Positions 1-24,719 of a stretch of 37,639 nucleotides of DNA are shown one piece after another (positions within the stretch are counted from its first letter, which is position 1; every line of letters starts with the position of its first letter). This DNA is from Nannochloropsis salina CCMP1776 (lineage: Eukaryota > Sar > Eustigmatophyceae > Eustigmatales > Monodopsidaceae): contig SDOX01000115.1 of assembly GCA_004565275.1 (NCBI GenBank), positions 897-38,535 of the forward strand. Direction: 5' to 3'. Made by a program: the position numbers and the translations under genes. Under the pieces are notes generated by a model that saw only the letters and a program-made list of their open reading frames with translations, was not told the DNA's origin and ran no database searches.

Positions 1-1506
1 TCGTTCCTCGATATCGCGTCCACGAAATTCACGGCATCCCCGCGTACAATAAGAAGTGAGTCGGGTGGGAGGGTGGGAGGGAGGGAGGGGGGGAGGGAGG
101 GAAGGGGAGGACGGGAAGGGGAGGTATCTGTGTCGGGCGTAGAGATGGACACCTTGGAATCCATTGAACCCTAACCCTAACCCTAACCCCCCTACAGACG
201 TGGACAACGCCCGCCCCTCATGTCGGAAGAGTCCATGCCCTTGGATACGCGCTTCAACGAGGTGGAGGGAGGCCAAGACTTATACCCGGATGAGAAGGGG
301 GTGTGGAATCTGGTGGAGGAGGGGGAGATGAAGGTGAGGGGAGGCAGGAGGGAGGCGGAGGAGGTCCCGCGGTGGTACTGACCGCATCGATGGTGCATTG
401 GAACGGTGCATTTGACATGAAAATCGATGATGAACAACTCCATGATCGATGGTGAACAAAGTCAACGTTGATGGCAAACAAAGTCAACGTTGATGGCAAA
501 CAAAGTCAACATTGATGGCAAACAAAATAAATCCAACAGTAATGGCGAAAAACTTCAATTGTGATGGCAAACAGAGTCACCATCAATATTGAACAAAGTT
601 AACAGTTATGACAAACAACTCTTCCTCCTGAAACAGGTGCAAGCGGCGCCCATGGTCCACACGGTGCCATGCGTAGGCTTCGTCGTGACCGAGAAGGACA
701 AGCCAGGGCGACTGCGTGCAGGTAAGGAGGACGCCCGGCAAGGACCTAGAAAGGGATCTAAAGGGGTTCTCCCCCTTTCTTGGTGTCGCCATTGGCAGGG
801 GCCCAGCTGTCGTGACCGTTACATTCAAAGGTTCAAAATGATCCTTGGAACGCCATGGCTGACCTGCCCGACTTGCCCCTCCATTTCCATCACTCGTTCC
901 CTCGGATCCCTCTCCCACACCACAGAGTACGTTCGGCCCATCGTGGAACGTAACAAGGCCGGTCTTCTGAAACGGGGACTGAGCGACCCCAACAAGATCT
1001 TCCGCCTCTTGAAGACTCTCCAGCCCGGGGAGGCAGTCAACCTCCCCGACGGGACTTTGCTCCGGGCGGAGGAGGTGATGGAGGCGGCGAAACAGGGCCG
1101 TAAAATCGTCATTTGCGGAGACACCTCCGACGCCTCGGGGATTGCCGCGCTGGCACAGGATTGCGACGTGCTCGTCCATGAAGCGACCAACGCTTTCTTG
1201 CTGCCTTTCGATAAGGGCACCTACATGGACGTGGAACGATTTGCCCGGGCCCATGGTCATTCCACGCCGCAGATGGCCGGTCATTTCGCGCACCGGGTCA
1301 GAGCCAAACGGTTGATAATGACGCACTTTAGCCCCCGTTACAAAGGTGACTTGAGCCCCGAGAGCCTCGCCATCATGAAACGCTTGGAAGACATGGCGCG
1401 CAAGACTTCGAAACTCCGAGCGGACCGAGTCTTGGCCGCACATGATTTGATGCTCGTGCCCATCCCATCGCCACAAAAAATGGCGGAAGTGGGAGCCGAT
1501 GACTAA
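1..1506 (+). CDS. tRNase Z (ribonuclease Z), 3' part of gene
   Basis: Endonuclease of the metallo-beta-lactamase fold that removes the 3' trailer from pre-tRNAs. The gene enters from the left edge, so the N-terminus with the main His-rich zinc motif is outside. Exons that join in phase: <1-55, 198-333, 637-721, 926-1506 (TAA). The peptide follows ELAC1-type enzymes: YRVHEI in exon 1, then DEKGVWNLVEEGEMK, then a VPCVGFVVTEKDKPGRL block matching IPSFGFSVVEKKRPGKL of human ELAC1 (recalled, not aligned by program). Exon 4 holds GDTSDA (metal-binding Asp), HEAT, HGHSTPQMAG and THFSPRY, the conserved C-terminal zinc/catalytic motifs. Introns are 142, 303 and 204 nt. Intron 1 carries telomere-like repeats and intron 2 a 22-nt tandem repeat. 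A poly(A)-like AATAAA lies at 1558-1563. Whether it acts in nucleus or organelle cannot be judged without the N-terminus. Confidence 0.93.
167..190 (+). repeat. Telomere-like (CCCTAA)3 inside intron 1 of tRNase Z
   Basis: Three CCCTAA-type units lie 7 nt before the intron 3' end (AG at 196-197). They provide CTAAC, the classical branch-site-like motif, at 171-175, 177-181 and 183-187. The first part of the same intron is G-rich (gggtgggagggtggg). Confidence 0.9.
448..625 (+). repeat. Degenerate 22-nt tandem repeat in intron 2 of tRNase Z
   Basis: Units of the form tgatggcaaacaaagtcaac recur head to tail. The first three (about 448-513) are nearly identical and later ones are progressively degenerate, reaching almost to the 3' splice site at 636. 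The repeat fills over half of the intron and shows no open reading frame of note. Confidence 0.7.
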
Positions 1507-2424
1507 GCTTGAAAGCACGAGGAAAGGCAGCAACTTAGGTCTTCGTTGTTTAGAGCAAATAAACATGGCGGATCAACACGCCACACAAAGTAAAGTAACT
1601 TACAAGTTGGAGTCTCAGTTTAGCACTTTTTACATTTTGTAATTTATTTCCACAGTCTTCAGGTGTAATTGCATCTCGATGTCAGCAGTCATTAGGAGTA
1701 CCATCAAACTTTGAATTATCAAGAACCGCGCGACCAAGAATGCCGGGAACGAATGAATTAATATGCATAATACTTATATATGTATGGATTTGAAGATGCA
1801 ATTCAAAAGCTGGGTCTGAGTACGTCTCCGAAAAGGACTCCCAAAATAGGACAAGCCATACGTACGCGTCTGGCACGTAAAAGGAGACCGTCGAAAACGC
1901 CACTTTTACACGTTCCAGGAAGGAATGGTCTCTTGCATGGCGACATCAAAAGTAACCACGTCAAATTTTAATAACGTGTTACATGTTGTTGGTCAATGGG
2001 TGCATGAGTCCCCGTATGTCACGAGAGGGTTGGGGGCTCGAGCTGGAACATCTGCTTACTGCGCGCAAGGACCGTCGCCATAAGTACTTTATGCAAATTG
2101 TGGAACCATCACTCCTTCACTACACTACTCATTATCAATGAAATGTTAACAGCTGTTCCTAGTCGTGGTTGTGTCAGATTTTCCCTACGTTTGCCCAACT
2201 AAAGGCACTAAAGCCGACTGACATGCCAGTAAGATTATGGTAGTTGCCTCGCTTTATATCTCTCTTGTCCGTCTTTACGGCCAATAAAATACGTAAGCAC
2301 TACCCCTCCGGCAAGCATGTCCATGTATAAAGATTCATCTGCAAAGAAAGAATTTGAACCCTCCAGAGGGGAGAAGTGGTAAAAAAACCCGGTTGATATC
2401 CACATCTTCCAAACAACACCAAGC
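1507..2424. other. Intergenic region, tRNase Z to U6
   Basis: More AT-rich than the flanking genes. It holds the tRNase Z 3' end with AATAAA at 1558-1563 and the upstream region of the U6 gene. Short open frames exist but none shows a family motif. I see no further gene. Confidence 0.5.
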
Positions 2425-2432
2425 TTTATAAG
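2425..2432 (+). promoter_or_regulatory. TATA box of the U6 gene
   Basis: TTTATAAG, with TATAAG starting at 2427, lies 28 nt upstream of the inferred U6 5' end at G2455. This is the usual spacing of the TATA element of RNA polymerase III U6 promoters. Confidence 0.75.
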
Positions 2433-2506
2433 TAGCATGGTATCCATCTAACTCGTTTACGGGAAACCGTATAACGCTAAAATTGGAACGATACAGAGAA
2501 GATTAG

Positions 2507-2615
2507 GTGAGTCCTGACCTCTGAGGGGAGGGTACCACGTTCGAGTCCCCGCGCTCCCCCTTGTCACGTCCTCACACAGTTTCTGCTCGCCTACCCTTCC
2601 CTTCCACCCTCACAG
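2507..2615 (+). other. mRNA-type GT-AG intron within U6 snRNA
   Basis: A 109-nt insertion with donor GTGAGT and acceptor CCCTCACAG lies exactly between GATTAG and CATGG of U6. Like protein-gene introns in this window it has a G-rich stretch near the 5' part (gaggggaggg) and a C/T-rich 3' part. Removing it restores an uninterrupted canonical U6. It contains a B box and a GGGGAG/CTCCCC inverted repeat that flanks that box. Confidence 0.92.
2539..2547 (+). promoter_or_regulatory. RNA polymerase III B box inside the U6 intron
   Basis: GTTCGAGTC matches the B-box consensus GWTCRANNC at every position. It lies 84 nt downstream of the U6 5' end and no tRNA cloverleaf can be folded around it. In yeasts the U6 B box binds TFIIIC, lying downstream of the gene in budding yeast and inside the intron in fission yeast. 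The same role is inferred here. Confidence 0.85.
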
Positions 2616-2664
2616 CATGGCCCCTGCGCAAGGATGACACGCACAAATCGAGAAGAGTACGTCC

Positions 2665-2674
2665 TTTTTTTTTT
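2665..2674 (+). terminator. RNA polymerase III T-run terminator of U6
   Basis: Ten consecutive T residues directly follow the U6 3' region (…TACGTCC then T10). A run of four or more T is the standard polymerase III stop and leaves the oligo-U tail of U6. Confidence 0.88.
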
Positions 2675-11614: not shown

Positions 11615-14600
11615 ATGACATTTGACGTCTCCTGCAAGACCAAAAAGAAGGATTTGCCTGGCTTTCGGGATGCATGGTCCGAATTTAAGTCGGAAATCGA
11701 AGACCTCAAGGCCATCGGCTGCTTTTCCAACCCCCCTCCCCCCCCAGCGACTCTCGCAAAGCAAGTGTCTCCCAAGCCCTCTATAAACATGAGCACTCAT
11801 AACACGAAGAAGCCACAGGCCGCGTCTAGTCCTCTCAGTACTGCACCCGTCCATCACAAGTCAAGTCCTCCTTCTGTAGCCTTACAACCCAACACAGCTC
11901 CACCACCTACCAGTCCCCCAGGCGGCCCTGCTGCCTCGGCACCAACTTTGCCCCTCACAACGCAACCCGTCAGAGGTTCCACGAACGTTTTGAAAACTTC
12001 CGGGGTGGATCGCATTGCCGGCACCAGCGGCTTTGGCGCTTTTGCCCACGGTGGTGCAGGAAAGGGGGGTTCCTTTTCCTCAAATGTTGGTGGCAATTTG
12101 TTTGCAAACGCGGCAGCGGCTGTGCTGGGCAGCAATCTGGCGACGCCGGGCACCGGCTTTGGAGCCGCCACCCGTCCCTCCATTTTTGAAATTAAGCAGA
12201 CGGAGACCAATGTGTTTTCGGGGGGATATGGGGCAGGCAGGGGCAAACCCGCGTTCAGCTTTTCCTTGCCGTCTTCCCGGGAGGGAAAGGCCCCGCATTC
12301 CCCAAGCAGACGGGGGCAAAGTCGAGCACAGAACGTCCAGGACGAGGACAGCGAGGAGGAGGACGACGAAGCCGTGGGTGTGACGGAGCACGTGGAGGCG
12401 GAAGAGGGAGAGGAGGTCGCGGCCCCCGGTTCTCCGAAGGATGTGATGGACCTGGCACGAACGGGCTGTTTGGCCCCTCACACAAGTCGGGAAGCAGAGG
12501 CGAAGGGTAGCATGGGCTGCGGCTTCCCCCTGCCTCCAGGTCCCGCCCTTCCCTCGTCTGTGTCCCTTCTTAGAGCGGGCAAGGAGGGAGAAGCCAGCCA
12601 GGGTAACCCCCTGGCTCCCCTTCCCTTTCCACCCTTCAGCAGCAAGGCTCCCTCACCCTTCGCCCTGAATATGCAGAGCCGTGGCAGCGTTGGCGGCGTA
12701 GGGTCATCGCAGGGCAGTTTGAACGGCGACATCCCTGCCTCTGGCGAGAAGAGCAACAGCCACAGCGGCATGACGCATACCACTAGACAGAGCGGCCCTG
12801 GCGGGTCGAAGGCGACTCTCTCACCTTTTCCTTCCTTCCCGAGTCGACCCTTTCCCGTTTTTACAATGCCTGGGGGGAGCGAAGGGCCTGACGCAGCCTC
12901 CAAGCTCCTAGCCAATGAGGGCAACACCGCCCCCCTCCGCCCGACCTCGGACGCACCGACCCCTCCAGCAGCGCCCCTCCCTCCATTCGGCATCAAGCCT
13001 CCCCCCCCCTCTCCGTTCTCCGCGGCAACTGCCCCAGACGCACAGGAGGCGACCGTGCGGCCACGCCTTCCTGGGCCAGGACCTTTACGGGATGACACAG
13101 ATGGGGGAATGGTTGATGGAGGCAACGCGAAGGAGCATACCCGGACTTTGCTCTCCGCGTCCCCAGCGGCTGCGGCGCCCATGCCGCCCTTGTCAATGAA
13201 AGCCCCCTCTGTGTTCGGCGGGCCATCGGGCGCGAGTGCCACGACTGCCGGCAGCAGTAGCAGCAGTAGCAGCAGGACAAGTGCGGGTGTGGCTGGAAAA
13301 GCTAGTGTGGGTACGGCGCCTATGCCGCCCTTGTCAATGAAAGCCCCCTCTGTGTTCGGCGGGCCATCGGGCGCGAGTGCCACGACTGCCGGCAGCAGTA
13401 GCAGCAGCAGCAGCAGGACAAGTGCGGGTGTGGCTGGAAAAGCTAGTGTGGGTACGGCGCCTATGCCGCCCTTGTCAATGAAAGCCCCCTCTGTGTTCGG
13501 CGGGCCATCGGGACATAGCCAAACGTCCATCACCACCGGCAGGAAAGCGGTAGAAAGTGCGGGAAGAAAGACTCCAGGACACTCCGCCGCATTGCCCCCC
13601 CTGTCTGACAAGGCACCATCCCTGTTCAAGTTCTCAACCGCACCCAGTCCCTCCTCTCCTGCCACGTCCTCCTTGCCACCGCCCAAGGTGGGGAAAGAGG
13701 GTCCGGGGGAGGGCTTAGGGAAGGCGGTGATGACGGCGATGCCGGCGCCGAGCAGCAGCGGATTCTGCTTTGGCGGCGGCGGTGGTGGTGGTGGTGGTTT
13801 CTCCTTCGGAGGGGGAGACGGGACGGTGGGGGGAAAGGGAAGGCTGGGAGGGGCTGTGGGTACGGGGGGTTTCAGCTTTGGGACAGACGGTAGGACGAGC
13901 ACGAGGGTGGGGGCGCAAGACGAGGTCAGGGAGGAAGCGTTGAGGGAGGAGGGAGGGAAGGAGGAAAAGCAGGAGGACTCCAGCGCGGCGGTGGTACCGA
14001 CGGTGGGAAAAGGAGGGGGCTGGGCGCACCGAGGGGAGGGCGAGGGGAAGGAGGAGGTCGGGGTGGAGGAGGCGGAGTTTGTGGGCGCGGAGGGCGGGGC
14101 GTACGAGGAGGGGGAGGAGGGGGAGGAGGAGGAGGAGGAGGAACGCGAGGAGGAGCGGGCGAGGGCGAGTGGCGGCGTGGGAGCAGGTGCTGCGGGAGGA
14201 AGGGAAGGAGGAGATGGACCGGGTTTGTTTCGAGGAGCTGTTGGCGGCGCTGAAGGTGTTCAAGGGGAAGGGGGGACGGGCGCGGTTGTTTGAGCGGCTG
14301 AGCGAGGGGTCGGGGAGGGTGGGAAAGGAGCGGGCGGGCGAGTGGTACGTGTCGTATTTGTTCGACGAGGAGGAGGAGGAGGAGGAAGAGGAAGAGGAGG
14401 AGGAGGAAGGGGAGGAGAAGGAAGAGAGGGTCGGGGTTGAGGCGGGCGCGAAAGGGTGGGGTGCGTTGGCGTCGACGCTGTCGCAGGGGTGGAAGTGTGC
14501 GTGCTGCCTGGCGCAGAACCCGGAGGAGAAGGAGACGTGCCAGGCGTGTGAGACGGGGCGGGAGGGGGCGGTGGGGAAAGAGGGTCCGGGGGAGGGCTTA

Positions 14601-15246
14601 GGGAAGGCGGTGATGACGGCGATGCCGGCGCCGAGCAGCAGCGGATTCTGCTTTGGCGGCGGCGGTGGCGGTGGTGGTTTCTCCTTCGGAGGGGGAGACG
14701 GGACGGTGGGGGGAAAGGGAAGGCTGGGAGGGGCTGTGGGTACGGGGGGTTTCAGCTTTGGGACAGACGGTAGGACGAGCACGAGGGTGGGGGCGCAAGA
14801 CGAGATCAGGGAGGAAGCGTTGAGGGAGGAGGGAGGGAAGGAGGAAAAGCAGGAGGACTCCAGCGCGGCGGTGGTACCGACGGTGGGAAAAGGAGGGGGC
14901 TGGGCGCACCGAGGGGAGGGCGAGGGGAAGGAGGAGGTCGGGGTGGAGGAGGCGGAGTTTGTGGGCGCGGAGGGCGGGGCGTACGAGGAGGGGGAGGAGG
15001 GGGAGGAGGAGGAGGAGGAGGAACGCGAGGAGGAGCGGGCGAGGGCGAGTGGCGGCGTGGGAGCAGGTGCTGCGGGAGGAAGGGAAGGAGGAGATGGACC
15101 GGGTTTGTTTCGAGGAGCTGTTGGCGGCGCTGAAGGTGTTCAAGGGGAAGGGGGGACGGGCGCGGTTGTTTGAGCGGCTGAGCGAGGGGTCGGGGAGGGT
15201 GGGAAAGGAGCGGGCGGGCGAGTGGTACGTGTCGTATTTGTTCGAC

Positions 15247-15281
<35 letters not shown>

Positions 15282-16651
15282 GAAGGAAGAGGAGGAGAAG
15301 GAAGAGAGTGTCGGGGTCGAGGCGGGCGCGAAAGGGTGGGGTGCGTTGGCGTCGACGCTGTCGCAGGGGTGGAAGTGTGCGTGCTGCCTGGCGCAGAACC
15401 CGGAGGAGAAGGAGACGTGCCAGGCGTGTGAGACAGGGCGGTGGGGGGCGGTGGGGAAAGAGGGTCCGGGGGAGGGCTTAGGGAAGGCGGTGATGACGGC
15501 GATGCCGGCGCCGAGCAGCAGCGGATTCTGCTTTGGCGGCGGTGGTGGTGGTTTCTCCTTCGGAGGGGGAGACGGGACGGTGGGGGGAAAGGGAAGGCTG
15601 GGAGGGGCTGTGGGTACGGGGGGTTTCAGCTTTGGGACAGACGGTAGGACGAGCACCACCGAGAACGACAGGCCTCGAAGTGGAAATACCGGTGGGTTTT
15701 CATTTGTAAGCGCTCACGCTCCTACTTTGCCGGATGGCAGTGGCACCACTGAAGCGCCCGCTCGCCCGTCAATGTTCGGCAATGTATCGCATTCCTCGCA
15801 TGCTCCAGCCTCGGTGTTCGGTCCTTCCACGTCGTCGACCTACTCGGGATCTTCCCTGCACACCCCTCCCTCCTTGAGATCTTCCCTGCACACCTCTCCT
15901 TCCCCACCTGGCCCCACGACAAGTTCCTCGGTGCCGGCCTTGCTGGTACGCCCGCCGGGTCCACACCGCAGCAACAGCGACTTTGACAAGGGATGCGGGC
16001 AGGTCACGGACACAACGGGCCCGCTCGCTATGGCTTCCACGCCCCATTTGGCGGGAACGCCGCTCTCTTTAGCCTCCCCTTTGGCCACCAACGGCCCTGC
16101 TCCAAGCTCCATGGGTGTGACTCCTACAACCTCTCGCATCGCTGCGTCGCCGTTTAGAGTTGCGGAGGCTTCTGGCGCTTCATCGGGCAGAGGATTGTGG
16201 ACAGGCGGGTCTTTTGAAAATTTCAAGCCTGCGACTGCATCCTCTGTTTTCCCTTTCTTCCCCACCCAGTCACCTCGCGCTTCCCCCCCCTCCCGCCAAG
16301 CACCTAGAGAAGAAAGAGAAAAAGAGCCCTGTCATTGAAAATGGAGGAGATAGCGTCGAGACTCAGACACAGAGCTCGAATGCATCGACGTCTCCTTCTT
16401 CTTCAACTTGTCCTGCAGCTCCCTCATCCTCCTTCACTTCCTCACCCGGTGCGGTGGAACCTAGCATGAGCGTGAAGGACCTGGTAGCGTCCTTGGACGG
16501 AAGTATGAATCGGCACAGAACGGACTTGATGGGTAAAAACACGGGAAATTTGGTTTGCCATGCATTTTCAGGCATCGAAGTACTTTGTATTTTGTATGTG
16601 AGTACAAAACAAAAAAGTAAGACTACGTGTCGAGAAGGGAAAAAGAGATAA
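11615..16651 (+). CDS. FxFG nucleoporin-like protein with RanBP2-type zinc fingers
   Basis: Likely nuclear pore component with FG repeats that bind transport receptors. The first frame opens at ATG 11615 (MTFDVSCKTKKKDLPGF), then a long Ser/Pro/Gly-rich disordered region with scattered FG motifs (PSVFGG, NVFSGG, PSLFKF) and clustered FSFG/FCFG motifs. Two RanBP2-type zinc fingers, W-x-C-x2-C-x3-N-x6-C-x2-C (WKCACCLAQN…CQAC), lie at 14490-14549 and 15370-15429; this finger type binds Ran in Nup153/RanBP2. The gene holds 141-bp repeats and a tandem duplication of about 880 bp. The reading frame moves by one nucleotide within each 880-bp unit and again near a C8 run at about 16283-16290, after which KHLEKKEKKSPVIENGG continues to TAA near 16651. 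I could not decide between introns, sequence error or real shifts, so this is a gene span, not a finished protein model. Confidence 0.72.
13175..13511 (+). repeat. 141-bp coding tandem repeat (47 aa), two full units and a third start
   Basis: The ATGCCGCCCTTGTCAATG block occurs at 13181, 13322 and 13463, a strict 141-bp period. Each unit encodes MPPLSMKAPSVFGGPSG followed by a Ser-rich linker. Copies are nearly identical, indicating recent in-frame expansion of an FG-bearing module. Confidence 0.95.
13688..15655 (+). repeat. Tandem duplication of about 880 bp, two units plus partial third
   Basis: GTGGGGAAAGAGGGTCCGG begins units at 13688, 14571 and 15451, giving periods of 883 and 880 bp. 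Units 1 and 2 are almost identical through FxFG repeats, an acidic segment, a WEQVLREEG/CFEELLAALKVF segment, a Glu tract and the zinc finger. Length differences lie in GGC/GGT (Gly) and GAG (Glu) triplet runs. Unit 3 stops after GGTAGGACGAGCAC, where unique sequence resumes. Confidence 0.95.
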
Positions 16652-17123: not shown

Positions 17124-20100
17124 CTATGTCAGGTCAATAATTTCACATTTAGGGTCTGCTATCAGTACTGTGGAAGCTGAAGAGGGGCGCAGGGCGACAC
17201 CTTCTGATATCTCGGGCATCGACGCCCTCGCCATTGGTTTCTTGCTGTCGCTAATTGCAAAATATTGCGTAATTGAGCGTTGCCATCGCCTCGTTAGTCC
17301 TGCAGACGTGGCTTGGAGGGAGGACGGCGACGGAGGTGCCATGTCGGTGTGTGGAAGGGTGCTACTAGGCAAGTGGTCGCTGTTCCTGGCGTCGGGGGTG
17401 GTGACAGCGTCATTGATATGCTCCTGGGTCGAATGATGTCCAGGGGCATTCCCACTACTTCTGCTTATAGAGGCGGTATCCAAGAGGGGACAAACTGCTT
17501 GAGCTGTAGATTCCATGGGGGAATGATTTGGACATCGAAGGCCTTCTTCAGAGATCTGCCGGGTTTGGCAAGACAAAGCCGCCGTCTCCGCGTCGGACCC
17601 TGTGAAATTTGAATGCCCGGGCACAGCTGCCACGGTCCCCCTCTTATTGCTACCGGTGAGACTGTCGCTCAGAGGCTTTTCAGGACAGGAAGAGATCGTG
17701 GCGGATGGTAGCGTATTGGCATGTTGGCCGGGCGTCCCTTTATCTGCCGCGAGTTTTCGGGACTCGAGCGAATGAGATTGGACGCTTAACATATAGTATG
17801 CCCATAGCTTATTGTCTAAAACGGTACCAAAAGAAGGATCTGGTGGCTTGCTCTTCCTCAGCGTCCCTCTCAGGGCATCACACTCGCCATAAGCTTTCAT
17901 CTGGCGCAACCGAAGCTGGAAGGCGTCTCCATTTTCGATGTCTTTGGTTTCCCTGTACCTACGTACAGCTGCCTCCTTCGCGGCGACCATCTCGTGCTGT
18001 CCATCATGCCTCCCAACGCCATCAATTTCGCTATTGGTCTCCTTTTCCGAAGCTTTTCGAAGTTTCCCTCGCACGACGCTTAAGTTTTTGAATGCGTCCG
18101 AATTCCAGTTCCGGCCAGGAGCCACGGCCTGGGAAGTGATTGCCCCGGTGCCTCCACCCTTCTCATGCCCCTGTCCTGCTCCACCGCTTCGGGCGCCCTC
18201 GGACTCCTGCGGTCCTCCCAAAGGAACATTGGCTTCGTGGTCTTCCTTCTCCGCTGCTGCCGCCAGCTGCTGCAGATCGTGGTCGTCGCCCCCGTCCGGG
18301 TTCACGGAGTGGATGAAGTCTTTCAAGCTCTCGATCAGTTCCTTCTCCTGCCCTTGCTTGATGCTCAACCCCACCAAACGCTCGCCCCGCGTCACACAGC
18401 GGACGACCTGGATGTCTTTGTTGTTTCGATCGATCACCACGTCCTGGATCGCCGGCCAAATCGGAACCACGGCGCCGCTCAAGACGTAGCAGGTGGAGAC
18501 CCGTCGGCCCACCGGACAAAATGTGCCCCCGTAGCTTTTGAAATGCATGGAGTTCGAAGGGTTGCACCAGCATCTATGGTCGCCTTTCACCTCGTACCGA
18601 TTTCCTTCCGCCCCGACCCGCCACCCTGCCTTTTGTCCCCGGGCATGGTGCAAACATTGGGTCATCGTCAGCTCGAAAAAACGGGTCCACCGGCGTTCTA
18701 CCATCTCCAAAAGCTTCCGAGCCGGCTTGACCTTGTTGTATTTTTCCAGCAAGTCTCTCCCGTGTAACGTGAATTCCTTGTAGTAGAATCCACCGGTTCC
18801 CCGCTCGCCCGTATTGGGGGAGATGATCTTGTATCGTTTCTGAGTTTGTGCGCCCAGGGTACCCGGCCGAAATGTGTGCCGGGAGAACGCCGACGTCACC
18901 AGCTCCAAAGCCAAGATCACCATGTCCGGATGACTGCGAAGGACGTAGAAACCTGTCCCTGTCCCATCATACAAGAACCCGTCCAATTCCACCTCGTCGT
19001 TCACGTCGTCTTTGGGCACACTGCTTGATGCTTCCGAACCTGTCTGGCCGACCATGGCACCGGCACCCCTTTTAAAAGTCGAGGCCACCGTCACGGGGCC
19101 ATTCGCCCGGGCCGCTGTCGCTGTCCCTTCTTCTTCCATCCGCAATCTTTGCAGCTTCGCGAGCCATTCGTCCCGCATGGCCAACGCCTTGGCAAAGGGG
19201 ATGCCTCGGTCCAGTTTCAACGTGTATAAAGTCAAGGGGACCCCCTGGAGTTTGATCAGCTCGTGCTTCCGGACGCTCAAGATGGACTCGGCGTACACGT
19301 CTGAGATGCCCATGTCCAGCGTCCCTTGAGACTTGGCCTCCGCCAGAATCTGGTCATGGATCACTTCGAAGAAATCGAACACCTGGTGCTGTGCTTCCAC
19401 GGTCAAAGCCAGCATGCGATTGAAGAGGCGGCTGATCGTCACGGCGGCTAAAGCCGTCGCGGAGGCCTTTGCCCTGCTGGATCCAGGGCCGTACTCGGCC
19501 CGGTCGCTAGATTCCTTGGAAAAGGGCTTGGCTAGGTCGACCAAACTCAAATTTTCGCGCAAAAACTTTTGGAACCTGCGGGTCTCGCCTTCTTGATCGG
19601 GGTGCTCCCGAATCCTCGCGGGCAAATGATTCTCCTGAATGTCCTGCTCCCCCAGGACGAAGCGGAGGAACACCTGTAGGGCTTGAAGGCCGTGCTTGGT
19701 ATCGAGGTCGTAGGTAGCCATTTCCTCCGACCCCATGCACGCCATCCGATCGCCTTGCGTCAAGGCTCCCAGCTGCCCGAGGCGTTTGGCGGCCGTCTAG
19801 GAGGTGAAAGCATTGCGTTTCCTTGTGAGAGCATGAAAGCTACGGATCGCTCTGAACCTTGGCAGAGACTTACCGCAGCAAAGCGAATTTCTCCGGGCAA
19901 GTCTGTCACGACGGTCAGGTATTCCGGCTGTTCAAAGTATCATAGAAAAGAAAAATAAGGTTGGAAGGATGGCTCCCAAGCCTAGAATACAGGACAAACC
20001 CGCCCGAGGTTGACTCACGTACCCCGGAAACTTGGTTGGAACGATGGGACCGACCGAGCTGTTGAACGAAAGAACTGCTGTTGTAAGGGATCTCCAGGGT

Positions 20101-23100
20101 CATGTGCACGCGCCGGCGTTTGTTTTGGGCACGCCGGTCTGCATGAAGGGAAATGCCCGTGCTTCCCGCTTCGGAAATAATCGCCACCAGCTTCCTCCCC
20201 GCTTGGAAGGCCCGCATTTCTTCGATGTTCACCCGCTTCTGGCTCACGCCCAGGGTCTTGGCCCGACTCACTTGCACAAGCTCTCCGCGCCGATTCCTTT
20301 CCAAACGGCATTTCCGACCCGTGATCTCCGCCACCTGCGTGTGCCCCCCCAACGCTTGGATCAAGTCATCCAGAGGGAACTGTGGGAGCTCCTGCGCCTT
20401 GACTTTGTCGATCAGATACGCCTTTTTGGCCGCATACTGGAAGGTCTCTCCCGCGCTCTGACACACGCCTGCGTCGGGGACGTACTTTCTGATGATATCG
20501 AGGAGGGTCGTCTCTATTCCGCCCAAGTCCTCCTCTTCCTCCCCAGTGGACCCACTACCCTCTGGTTTCCCTCCTGAAGTTTTCCCCACAGCTTTGACCT
20601 TAAGCTCCTTTCCTTCCTCGTCCTCACCATTTCCATCCCCGACGTCAGCGCTTTGACTTTTCCTGGCCCCCAAGCCGCCTTCTTTGACCGGTTTACTCTC
20701 TTCCTCCTCCGATTCCCAATTTGACAGGCCCGACTTTATCCCCCAGGCGTAATTCGGTCGACATCCCCCCCGTCGCTCACGGCCCTCCTCCCTCTTTCCC
20801 CACGGTGATTCAGTTTGCGCGACCCGACGTTGCGCGTAGCGTTTCGCCACCGCCTCGCCCGTTGAAAGCAAACCGATCACCACACATTTGCCGTCTTGGA
20901 TCGCTTTCTTGGCCAGGGCGGTAACGTGGGGGATCTTGGCGGCCACGCAGATGTGCCTGAGGGAGGGAGCGGAAAAAAGGATGTTCATGGAGCAGAGTGA
21001 GTGACCGGCAGGTATGCTTGGCTCGGCGTGCCGATGACGTGCGATTCGTAAGACCGAGGTTGCTATTAAATCACCACACTGGACAGCGAAATAGTCGATA
21101 TTTTTCGTTTGCCATCCTCCTCCTTCGAGCCTCTCAGCTCAGGCGCACTCTCACACGTCCAGGCGTTGACGGTCGTATTCTCAGCCTCATCTCTGGCCGA
21201 TGGACGCCTGTTCCAGAATCTCTTTCGACTTACTATCAAGAGCAGCCACTAACTACCCTCCCACGCACCGAAAGAACCGAAGATGCGCGGACCAAAAATT
21301 TCCACCGAAGGACCTCAGGTGCGCCGCGAGAAGCGGGGGTAAGACTTGGTTCTGAGTCTCGATATAGTATGCGTTTCCTTGGACGAGGTCCGTCTTGGCT
21401 AAATTCATCACTTCCAATACTTCATACCTGGAACGGGAGGGAATGGAAGAGCCGAGGGAGGGAAAGAAAGCAGGGTTCGCATGGGGGAAAGCAGCAAGAC
21501 GCATCTGTTTACATGGAAATCCGAGTAGGGTGAGGATAGTGGGAGGTGGCGCGCTTGCCTCTCCCTACAACTGCCGCCTCCCCCTCGAGGCCAGGGGGCA
21601 TGGAAGACTTCCAGCATGCCGTCGGACCCGGCGTCGCTTTCCTCTTTTCTTTTCCCTCTCGCCGACTTCCCATACCCCATTCACGGCATCGAAGGACGGC
21701 GTCTTCTCGCCGTGTCCTGTCGTTTCGGTACCCATCCCTTTTAAGGGCCCGGTCGGTGTAGCCCTCCGAAACCTGCCACAAACTGCCCCACTACCCTCTG
21801 CTCGAATAGCTCCCGGGAATCCGACGCCGGTGTTTACAGCTTTAACCCCTGAGCCCTCCCTTCTCACATCAGAACCAAACCCCCGACCCCTACCCCTTCC
21901 CCTTCGTACCAGACGCCCACAAGTTTGTCGTATTTGACCCGGAATTCCTCCGCCATGGGCACTTGCTCAATCTTGAAGGAGGTGTCTTGGAAGGAGAGGG
22001 CGCGCGCCGCGTACTTCCCTTGGGATTTCAGGTTCAAGGAGATGAGTTCCAAGGCACCGATGCTTCTTTTGAAGCCACTTTCGTGCAAAAAGGCGTCCAG
22101 GTCCTCGAAAAGAGTCCCGTTCTCCCGACCGTACAGACCCAGCCGGCGCATGTACCTGAAGGAGGGGGGGAGGGAAGGGGGGAGGGAGGGCAGACGGGAG
22201 GGGGAAAGAAGATCAACGGGACGAGAAAGGGCATCGGAACACATTAGAAACGCCGAAAGAGTCACTTTGTGACGGCCCCGATACGGGCGTTAGAGCGCTT
22301 CCTCGAGCGACACAAAGGGCACCTTAAGACGGCACCTCCAGGCATACGGCGCTCAAATCTTTCTTCCCCTTCCATCCCCTCCCTCCCTCATTCCCTCCCT
22401 CCCTCCCTCCCTCCCTCCCTTCCTCCCCTGTCCCCCCCCCCCCCCTACGTACGCTAAATTTTCCAAAGAGCTGGCCCCCGTCGCACTCACGTAGCAGACC
22501 CGCGCCCGGGGCAAGCGTTGCTGGATCTCCTCCACGCTGAGCGCCGTCTTGCTGCTCTTTTCGTTCCCTCCTGCGCGCTTGGACGGATCCTTCTCGGGTA
22601 GAAGTTTCTTGGCTTTGTGGCCTGGATAAAAGGAAGGGAAGAAAGGGAAGGGAAGGAAGGGAATGAGTCCGTAACGCCCGGGTCGGCACTCCAACCCCCC
22701 CCTCCCTCCCCCCCTCCCCCTCCCCCTCGTCCACACCCACCCTCATCGAAGACCATGACCCCATTGAATTCCTCCCCCCCCGCCTGCGCCCAGACCACCA
22801 GCTGGTCCACCCGCGTCATCCCGCTCTCCAGCCGGGTCTTCCCCACGGAGGTAGTGTAGGTCACGAAGACGATCCCCTGGAAGTGCCGAAGACGCGCGTC
22901 GTCGTAGGCAAGCGTGTTCAGGCTCACGGTGGGGATAAAACCGGCGCCAATGTCCAGCAAATCCCGCTGGGCATCCACGTACAGGTCGTTGGAGACGGAG
23001 AACCAGAAATGTTTCCGACGACCGCGCAGCCAATTTTCCAGGATCAATCCCGCGATGGTCCGGCCTTTGCCCACGCCGGCTGGGAAAACGTGAGGTCACG

Positions 23101-24719
23101 GGCGACAGCGAAGGTGGGGGCGGACACGGGCAAGGGAGAACACGATGAGGGTGGGGTCGGCCATAATAGCCATGGGACATGACAAAAGCTACCCGGATCT
23201 GTTCTCGGATCGGTCACGGCCTCCCTCCCTCCCTTCCTCCCTTACCGCCGTCGCCGATGAAAAACCCGCCCACCTCCTGTCCGTTCACGAGGTTTTTTTC
23301 GTGCTGCTGGGACGCATAGACGATGGATTCCAACTGGGCGCTCGAGAGGAGCCCCGCGTCGATGGCAGCCTGCATGCCCGGGTGCAAGACGTACCAGACG
23401 TCGGGAGGCGTGGCCCGCGCAAGGACGGATGTCTCCACAATCTTACCCGGATGAGGCCGGCCCAGGTGCAGTTTTTGGGGCCTGTAAGCGGTGAACACCT
23501 CTGAGACTTCGCCCCCTTCCTTTTCCGGGAGCTCCTCGCCGGCGGCGTCTTCCTCCTCCTCCCCCTCCCCCTCCTTCCCCTCCTCCCCCTCCTTTCCCTC
23601 CTCGACCACCACCAGTTCCGCCTCCGATTCGGACTCCTCCACCACCACCTTCGATGACCTTCCCTTTCTAACGACGTCCCCCTTCTCCTCCACCTCCCCC
23701 ATCCGCTTGCGTTTCGACCGAGTCAGACGCCCTCCTGCCTCCTCACCCTTTCCCTCCACCTCCTCCGCCTTCACGCCTGCGCCTGGGACGCGGGCCTTGC
23801 CCTTCTTTCTCCCCATCCCCGGGCTCTTTTCCTCCTGTTCCTTCCCTTGCGTGTTTACGCCTTTCACCCGGTCGTCCTCAAAGTTCCCTTTCCCGGCCGC
23901 CACCCGCGCGGAGGGGGCGTTCCGATCCGCTCCCTGCGCGACACTCGAACGCCGGGAGGAGCGCCGGGGCCGGCTGCGGTTGCTCTCGTCGCTCAAAGGC
24001 AGTCGCTGTAAGGCCAACGAGATCGAAAGTGGGAGGCTGGAAGGTGAATGATACGTGTCCGGGGTCCTTTTACAACGAGATCGAAAGTGGGAGGCTGGAA
24101 GGTGAATGATACGTGTCCGGGGTCCTTTTACAACGAGATCGAAAGTGGGAGGCTGGAAGGTGAATGATACGTGTCCGGGGTCCTTTTACAACGAGATCGA
24201 AAGTGGGAGGCTGGAAGGTGAATGATACGTGTCCGGGGTCCTTTTACAAGCGTCTGCCCAACATCCCCCCTTGCCTCGGCTTACCTCCTCGCTTGCTTCC
24301 GTGACTACCTCCTTCTCAGGCGGTGTCACGGCATTGCCATTGCCTGCGCCTTTTGCCCCGCTGGGAACTCGTTTACGCTTCCCCCCAGCCGCCGGGGCGG
24401 CGGCAGTGGCCTCTTTGTCCTTCAACGAAGCTGCCTCCGCGGCTGCCGCCTCCATTTTTGCAAGGCTCGCGGCCAAACGAGCCGCTTCTGCGGCCTCTGC
24501 GGCCGCTTCTTCTTCCTTTTTTCGAACCATTTCCGCCTCTTCAGCCTTGCGTTGCCTGTGTGATTGCGTTTTCAAGGGGTGCAGGCAGACAGGTTGGGAA
24601 GCGCACATGGTTTCATGCCTCTCTGCCTCGGGCACTTACGTTTCCCGTGCTTGATAAGCCGACTTGACGAGGGTCTCTACATCCATTTCCAGGAGCGCGT
24701 CATCATCATCACTAGCCAT
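17124..24719 (-). CDS. SBNO-like: Strawberry notch (SBNO/FORGETTER1) family helicase
   Basis: DExD/H-type nucleosome and transcription regulator. Ten exons join in phase to 1,894 aa: 24640-24719, 24285-24555, 23246-24005, 22741-23079, 22453-22621, 21910-22155, 21269-21427, 20023-20956, 19874-19927, 17124-19796. The N-terminus is Ala/Glu/Lys coiled-coil-like and acidic. The core begins KLHLGRPHPGKIVETS and IVYASQQHE, then GDGAGVGKGRT (Walker A, residues 372-378 across a splice), SVSNDLYVDAQRDLLDIGA, VFDEGHKAK (Walker B about 482-485; most family members have DECH), CYVSATGAS, NFWSAHLRFFR, GKCVVIGLLSTGEA, SEAGSTGISLHADRRAQNKR and QLGRSHRSNQVSG (motif VI, about 974-986). The SBNO-specific C-terminal domain (LGALTQGDRMA) follows. 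A tail of several hundred extra residues ends with a PIP box (1843-1850) and a SUMO-interacting motif (1890-1894). Nuclear. Confidence 0.95.
17127..17282 (-). other. C-terminal PIP box and SUMO-interacting motif of SBNO
   Basis: Codons 17259-17282 encode QRSITQYF, which fits the PCNA-interacting consensus Q-x-x-[ILM]-x-x-aromatic-aromatic exactly. Codons 17127-17141, the last five before the stop, encode IIDLT, the same core as the VIDLT SUMO-interacting motif of PIAS proteins, preceded by Cys-Glu. Thirty-nine residues separate them. Function is inferred from the motifs only. Confidence 0.75.
24015..24246 (-). repeat. 58-bp perfect tandem repeat, four units, in SBNO intron 2
   Basis: Units start at 24015, 24073, 24131 and 24189 (caacgagatcgaaagtggga…). 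All four read the same, and the array runs to within 10 nt of the 3' splice site of exon 3 (exon starts at 24005). It makes up most of the 279-nt intron. Confidence 0.97.

What the first reader, a model, noticed from the sequence alone, without database searches (positions are those of the whole stretch)
2455..2668. U6 snRNA gene with a spliceosomal intron that splits the catalytic AGC triad
Seen: canonical U6 sequence is cut by a 109-nt GT…AG insertion between GATTAG and CATGG, so AG and C of the AGC triad are on different exons, next to the ACAGAGA box. The exact reconstruction of U6 on removal leaves little doubt. Known: mRNA-type introns in U6 genes were described in fission yeast and some other fungi. 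Inferred: here a polymerase III transcript must be spliced by the spliceosome whose own catalytic RNA it encodes, a self-dependent loop. I know of no such report for this lineage, but I cannot search. Reverse splicing into the U6 active site is a natural explanation of the position.
Basis: partly seen in the sequence, partly recalled or inferred. Interest (0 to 1): 0.92.

Follow-up and report, generated by a model that had tools for sequence, protein, structure and literature searches.

The report
Split U6 gene in an alga
In a Nannochloropsis-type alga the only copy found of the gene for U6, the RNA at the heart of the splicing machine, is itself interrupted by an intron, so the machine apparently has to splice its own key part; the intron also carries what looks like a start signal for the gene, as reported for fission yeast.

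Summary
Confirmed: window 2455-2674 holds a U6 snRNA gene (Rfam 60.4 bits, cut-off 44). Its core is cut by 109 nt, GTGAGT...CACAG (2507-2615), between G and C of the catalytic AGC triad; removal restores canonical U6. No uninterrupted U6 was found in the 26.5-Mb assembly, and the intron has one copy there. The single U2, U4 and U5 matches have no room for an insertion. TATA (-28) and a T10 tract suggest a Pol III gene. New here: the intron contains a B-box-like CGTTCGAGTCC (2538-2548), inside the score range of the genome's nuclear tRNA B boxes though below 12 of 17; 45 of 20,000 shuffles do as well. An upstream element common to U2/U5 and U2/U4 was not detected in U6. The genome belongs to the Nannochloropsis salina/gaditana group. 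U6 introns with a B box are reported for Schizosaccharomyces, so the kind is known; listings of eight searches showed none outside fungi. Best reading: a Pol III transcript spliced by the spliceosome it supplies, with an intron probably kept because it carries a promoter element. Splicing and promoter function are inferred; no RNA data or related genomes were available.

The parts
2425..2432 (+). TATA box TTTATAAG, about -28 from the predicted 5' end
   Evidence: read; position computed
2455..2506 (+). U6 exon 1: 5' stem-loop, ACAGAGA box (2493-2499), AG of the AGC triad (2505-2506)
   Evidence: cmscan; fold of the 5' stem; genome search. The 5' end is predicted, not mapped
2507..2615 (+). 109-nt mRNA-type intron, GTGAGT...CACAG; possible branch site CTCAC with A at 2574, 41 nt from the 3' splice site
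   Evidence: one copy in the genome
2538..2548 (+). B-box-like element CGTTCGAGTCC inside the intron, 83 nt from the predicted start
2616..2664 (+). U6 exon 2: C of the AGC triad, internal stem-loop and U4-pairing region, 3' end
2665..2674 (+). T10 tract, expected Pol III terminator and U6 3' tail
   Evidence: read

Best explanation
This is the working U6 snRNA gene of an alga of the Nannochloropsis salina/gaditana group. RNA polymerase III starts about 28 nt downstream of the TATA box, reads through a 109-nt mRNA-type intron and stops in the T10 tract. The major spliceosome then removes the intron. Until that happens AG and C of the catalytic triad are separated and the pairing with U2 is broken, so new U6 depends on existing U6 (inferred). 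The intron probably carries the internal promoter element (B box, bound by TFIIIC), as reported for Schizosaccharomyces; this would explain why it is kept (inferred). Shown: sequence, intact flanks, single copy found in the assembly, B-box match. Not shown: transcription, splicing, TFIIIC binding. I put the spliced, working U6 gene at about 0.92 and the functional B box at about 0.6.
For: U6 match over the full model with one insertion. Joined exons match only here, each 100%; the uninterrupted core with up to 2 mismatches gives two sites, both with 2 mismatches (I estimate about one by chance); one Rfam U6 match; one copy of the intron. Partner RNAs: one match each for U2 (189 nt for a 192-position model, 111.7 bits), U4 (133 nt for 138, 64 bits) and U5 (110 nt for 117, 42.5 bits against a cut-off of 40). 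U2 GCTTAGATC and the U5 loop are intact and U4 has a nine-pair complement to exon 2. Two introns of another window gene are of the same class: 166 nt GTAAGG..CCCAG, and 95 nt GTACGT..AACAG (a 104-nt alternative with another donor also fits). B box: 12.2 against 5.6 to 16.7 for 17 nuclear tRNA sites, 12 of which score higher; 45 of 20,000 mononucleotide shuffles and 46 of 20,000 first-order Markov sequences reach it; 2 of 106,098 positions of the window and five other loci score as high, this being one. Upstream blocks: U2/U5 agree in 15 of 16 bases (0 of 100 shuffles as good), U2/U4 in 13 of 16 (2 of 100); U6 against U2, U4 and U5 is matched by 100, 73 and 100 of 100 shuffles.
Against: No RNA reads. 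Only 47 of 1456 first-look U6 candidates were scored, and a fetched stretch of one contig reads N. No A box in exon 1: 4142 of 5000 shuffles score as well. The U4/U5 comparison alone does not show the common upstream element (best pair elsewhere, 12 of 100 shuffles as good). The energy of U4 with exon 2 is not exceptional (272 of 2000 shuffles reach it). Lack of TTTT in the intron is weak support: 2585 of 3754 tiles of that length lack it. At threshold 11 there are 8 B-box-like positions of 106,098, one of them upstream of U6 on the other strand. The N. salina U6 promoter and terminator were cloned for guide RNA and edited lines were obtained (passages of PMC7464416); if that construct lacked the intron, the B box is not essential.
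Confidence: 0.65

Rival explanations
1. The gene is spliced as above, but the B box is a chance match; transcription runs from the upstream TATA and a diverged upstream element, and the intron persists by drift.
For: TATA at -28. A CACATC string lies near -56 (sequence). N. salina U6 promoter used for guide RNA. No A box. A B-box match as good arises in 45 of 20,000 shuffles.
Against: The match is on the right strand, downstream of the start, and inside the intron, where Schizosaccharomyces is reported to have its own (title). The element common to U2/U5 and U2/U4 was not detected in U6.
Confidence: 0.3
2. This locus is silent; an intronless U6 that is missing from or masked in the assembly supplies the cell.
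For: The assembly has 103 contigs and a fetched stretch reads N; candidates were scored only in part.
Against: Exons are intact with TATA and T10; three searches of different kind found no second copy.
Confidence: 0.05
3. The insertion is a sequencing or assembly artefact.
For: No reads could be checked.
Against: The insert obeys GT-AG exactly at the one phase that restores U6, and it has no second copy in the genome from which it could have been misjoined.
Confidence: 0.02

Closest known systems
Intron-containing U6 genes of Schizosaccharomyces
   Same: [quoted passage not shown] introns with a B-box match (title of Frendewey et al. 1990 in a reference list)
   Different: A stramenopile, not a fungus; intron length and exact insertion site in fission yeast were not compared, since the paper is not held
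U6 introns across fungi (Canzler et al. 2016)
   Same: Repeated intron gain in U6 (title in a reference list)
   Different: Fungi, by its title; full text not held
Budding yeast U6 (SNR6) with a downstream B box
   Same: TATA plus a displaced B box (recalled, no call)
   Different: There the B box lies beyond the terminator and the gene has no intron (recalled, no call)

Membership tests
U6 spliceosomal RNA (RF00026) | match above the curated cut-off over the full model | tested here: met
   60.4 bits against 44, positions 1-105
U6 spliceosomal RNA (RF00026) | ACAGAGA box, AGC triad and U2-pairing string after intron removal | tested here: met
mRNA-type spliceosomal intron | GT-AG ends that restore the exon product exactly, splice sites like those of the organism | tested here: met
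   two introns of one other gene for comparison
mRNA-type spliceosomal intron | removal in vivo by the spliceosome | not testable with these tools
   no RNA reads available
Schizosaccharomyces-type U6 gene | B-box match inside the U6 intron | tested here: met
   sequence match only; TFIIIC binding not testable
Type 2 (A box plus B box) Pol III promoter | A box near the start | tested here: not met
   best site in exon 1 is reached by 4142 of 5000 shuffles; the matrix of 16 tRNAs has at least one row out of register
snRNA-type upstream promoter of this genome | upstream element in common with U2, U4, U5 | tested here: not met
   three U6 comparisons, 110 nt, ungapped: 100, 73 and 100 of 100 shuffles as good; a weak or gapped relative is not excluded

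The most novel reading that the evidence does not exclude
A stramenopile has independently reached the fission-yeast arrangement: the only U6 gene is split inside its catalytic triad by an intron that carries the Pol III promoter element, so that losing the intron through a cDNA copy of spliced U6 would silence the gene. The intron is thereby locked in, and the spliceosome depends on splicing its own catalytic RNA.
Probability: 0.45. Interest if true: 0.78.

Novelty: new member of a known kind. Interest (0 to 1): 0.66.

Why it matters
The U6 introns I know of are fungal (recall, and the papers cited). A case in a distant eukaryotic lineage, at the catalytic triad and with an intronic B box, would suggest that both features can arise more than once. 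It would let two ideas be tested by comparison: reverse splicing into the active site as the source of such introns, and promoter capture as the reason they stay. It also matters in practice: constructs built on the U6 gene of these biotechnological algae may lack a promoter element if they stop upstream of the intron.

Tried and rejected
A tRNA origin of the intron: its stretch GTTCGAGTCCCCGCGCTCC looks like a tRNA 3' end, but within 2 mismatches the search of the genome returned only this place, and ARAGORN finds no tRNA in the window. A structured or self-splicing insert: folding is ordinary (z -0.20), and a permissive Rfam scan of 2300-2900 lists 4 matches, of which only U6 reaches its gathering score. 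A mobile intron family: one copy only. Other sources with the intron: the U6-GT pattern gave 0 in viral contigs and 0 in bacterial and archaeal genome contigs; an uninterrupted U6 pattern gave 0 in viral contigs. These are not collections of algal genomes, so the zeros say nothing about relatives. U1 and U6atac were not found; those searches rang in no control genome either. An upstream element common with U2, U4 or U5 was looked for in U6 and not found. For one of three strawberry-notch introns tested, no GT-AG pair gave the peptide that I expected. Plastid typing of the species failed because the fetched stretch gave no ORF of 200 aa and its first 300 bases read N.

Papers: Frendewey 1990 and Canzler 2016 are not held and are known here by title only. 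Searches whose listings (titles and starts of abstracts; searches list 20 of 28, 7 of 8 and 20 of 33 papers) show no U6 intron outside fungi. A ninth search, on Rhodosporidium dacryoidum, gave one unrelated paper. The library lacks most subscription papers.

Full report
The window has one Rfam match at its gathering score, U6 at 2458-2669 on the + strand, 60.4 bits, full model length, with a single long insertion. The insertion is 109 nt, 2507-2615, from GTGAGT to CACAG. Exon 1 also ends in AG, so the cut could slide, but only the cut between AG and C gives GT-AG (my reading). Removal leaves ACAGAGAAGATTAGCATGGCCCC, the canonical core.

Copies. In the 26,503,672-base assembly (103 contigs) the U6 family has one match (47 of 1456 first-look candidates scored). 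The joined exons match only here, each 100%. The uninterrupted core pattern with up to 2 mismatches gives two sites, both with 2 mismatches; I estimate about one by chance. The intron has no second copy. U2, U4 and U5 have one match each, 189 nt for a 192-position model, 133 for 138 and 110 for 117; the lengths leave no room for an intron. U5 is only just over its cut-off (42.5 against 40 bits). U1 was not found, nor U6atac; neither search rang in any control genome, so this shows nothing.

Function of the exons. The genome's U2 has GCTTAGATC, which can pair with GATTAGC of spliced U6; the unspliced sequence does not contain GATTAGC. U5 loop 1 and the U2 branch-site recognition string are intact, and U4 offers a nine-pair complement to exon 2. 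The overall U4-exon 2 energy is not exceptional against shuffles (272 of 2000), so this last point is support by position only.

The intron. Three introns of a strawberry-notch homologue in the same window were tested: one is placed at 166 nt, GTAAGG...CCCAG; one fits with two donors, 95 nt GTACGT...AACAG (my choice) or 104 nt; for the third no GT-AG pair gave the peptide I expected. The U6 intron is of that class. It has no unusual fold and no other RNA family reaches its gathering score nearby. CTCAC with A at 2574 is one of three possible branch sites by the loose consensus; the other two lie 98 and 3 nt from the 3' splice site.

The B box. Of 52 tRNA-model matches, the 16 outside contigs C102 and C103 (taken as organelles by size and, for C102, by its reading frames) were all fetched. 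ARAGORN reads 17 tRNAs there, one doubtful. A weight matrix from the 17 gives the intron site CGTTCGAGTCC (2538-2548) 12.2, within the tRNAs' own range (5.6 to 16.7), with 12 of 17 above it; 45 of 20,000 shuffled and 46 of 20,000 Markov introns do as well. With 16 tRNAs it scores 11.9, 12 of 16 above it; 2 of 106,098 positions of the window and five other loci reach that, and it is one of them. At a threshold of 11 there are 8 such positions, an expectation of 0.0075 for an intron of this size; one of the eight lies on the - strand at 2360, upstream of U6 (11.3). No A box is found in exon 1 (4142 of 5000 shuffles as good). TATA-like boxes lie between -32 and -28 of the Rfam starts of U6, U2, U4 and U5. 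U2 and U5 have nearly the same 16 bases at -60, and U2 and U4 agree in 13 of 16 near -57; the direct U4/U5 comparison does not find this (12 of 100 shuffles as good for another pair). U6 shows no significant match to any of the three, though a gapped or weak relative (CACATC near -56) is not excluded. TATA plus intronic B box is thus the simplest Pol III promoter reading, with the T10 tract as terminator; that U6 is a Pol III gene is general knowledge plus these signals, not a measurement.

Lineage. The flavohaemoprotein next door is 56% identical to one of N. oceanica, with unnamed proteins at 64-68% over two thirds of its length. The assembly has contigs of 114,821 and 41,992 bases; published plastid/mitochondrion sizes are 114,883/41,907 for N. 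salina CCMP537 and 114,867/42,206 for N. gaditana CCMP527, and 117,463-117,806/38,057-38,791 for five other strains (passage of PMC3750441). A mitochondrial ORF is 96% identical to an unnamed protein and 61% to N. oculata. So the genome is of the salina/gaditana group (named Microchloropsis by recall), a eustigmatophyte stramenopile; the species is not settled.

What is known. [quoted passage not shown] A title in the latter's reference list says that Schizosaccharomyces U6 introns match the B-box consensus. A 2017 paper calls U3 and U6 the only small structured RNAs known to be often interrupted by an intron and cites a title on multiple gains in fungi (passages of PMC5832005). In two papers on algal nucleomorph and euglenid snRNAs, the passages shown do not report a split U6 (PMC6461891; PMC10679874). 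The listings of eight searches show no report for Nannochloropsis or another non-fungus (three of them list only part of their hits), in an open-licence library only. In N. salina the U6 promoter and terminator were cloned for guide RNA and edited lines obtained (passages of PMC7464416); whether the intron was included could not be seen.

Judgement. The arrangement is of a known kind, apparently in a new and distant lineage. That the gene is split and works through splicing is very likely. That the intron is kept as a promoter carrier is more likely than not, but rests on one 11-base match and on precedent. Origin by reverse splicing remains possible and untested.

Noticed in passing
L002 about 1441-1500; L037 and L038 upstream of U4 and U5: U2 and U5 have nearly the same 16 bases at -60 (GAATCAYATTCTTGTT) and U4 resembles U2 there, with TATA near -31: a candidate snRNA promoter element of this alga.
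   Followed up: partly
window 2350-2360, - strand: A second B-box-like site (GGTTCAAATTC, score 11.3) about 95 nt upstream of U6 on the opposite strand.
   Followed up: no
window 565-1503 +: Open frame with a weak metallo-beta-lactamase superfamily match (Lactamase_B_2, 22.9 bits, below the cut-off of 27), left neighbour of U6; possibly an RNase Z relative (recalled).
   Followed up: no
window about 13700-15700: Near-identical long stretches repeated in a low-complexity gene, seen as repeated translations in the ORF list.
   Followed up: no
window 17127-24185 -: Strawberry-notch homologue in several exons; some of its introns begin with G-rich runs, and GGREGG-like low-complexity frames recur in the window.
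   Followed up: partly
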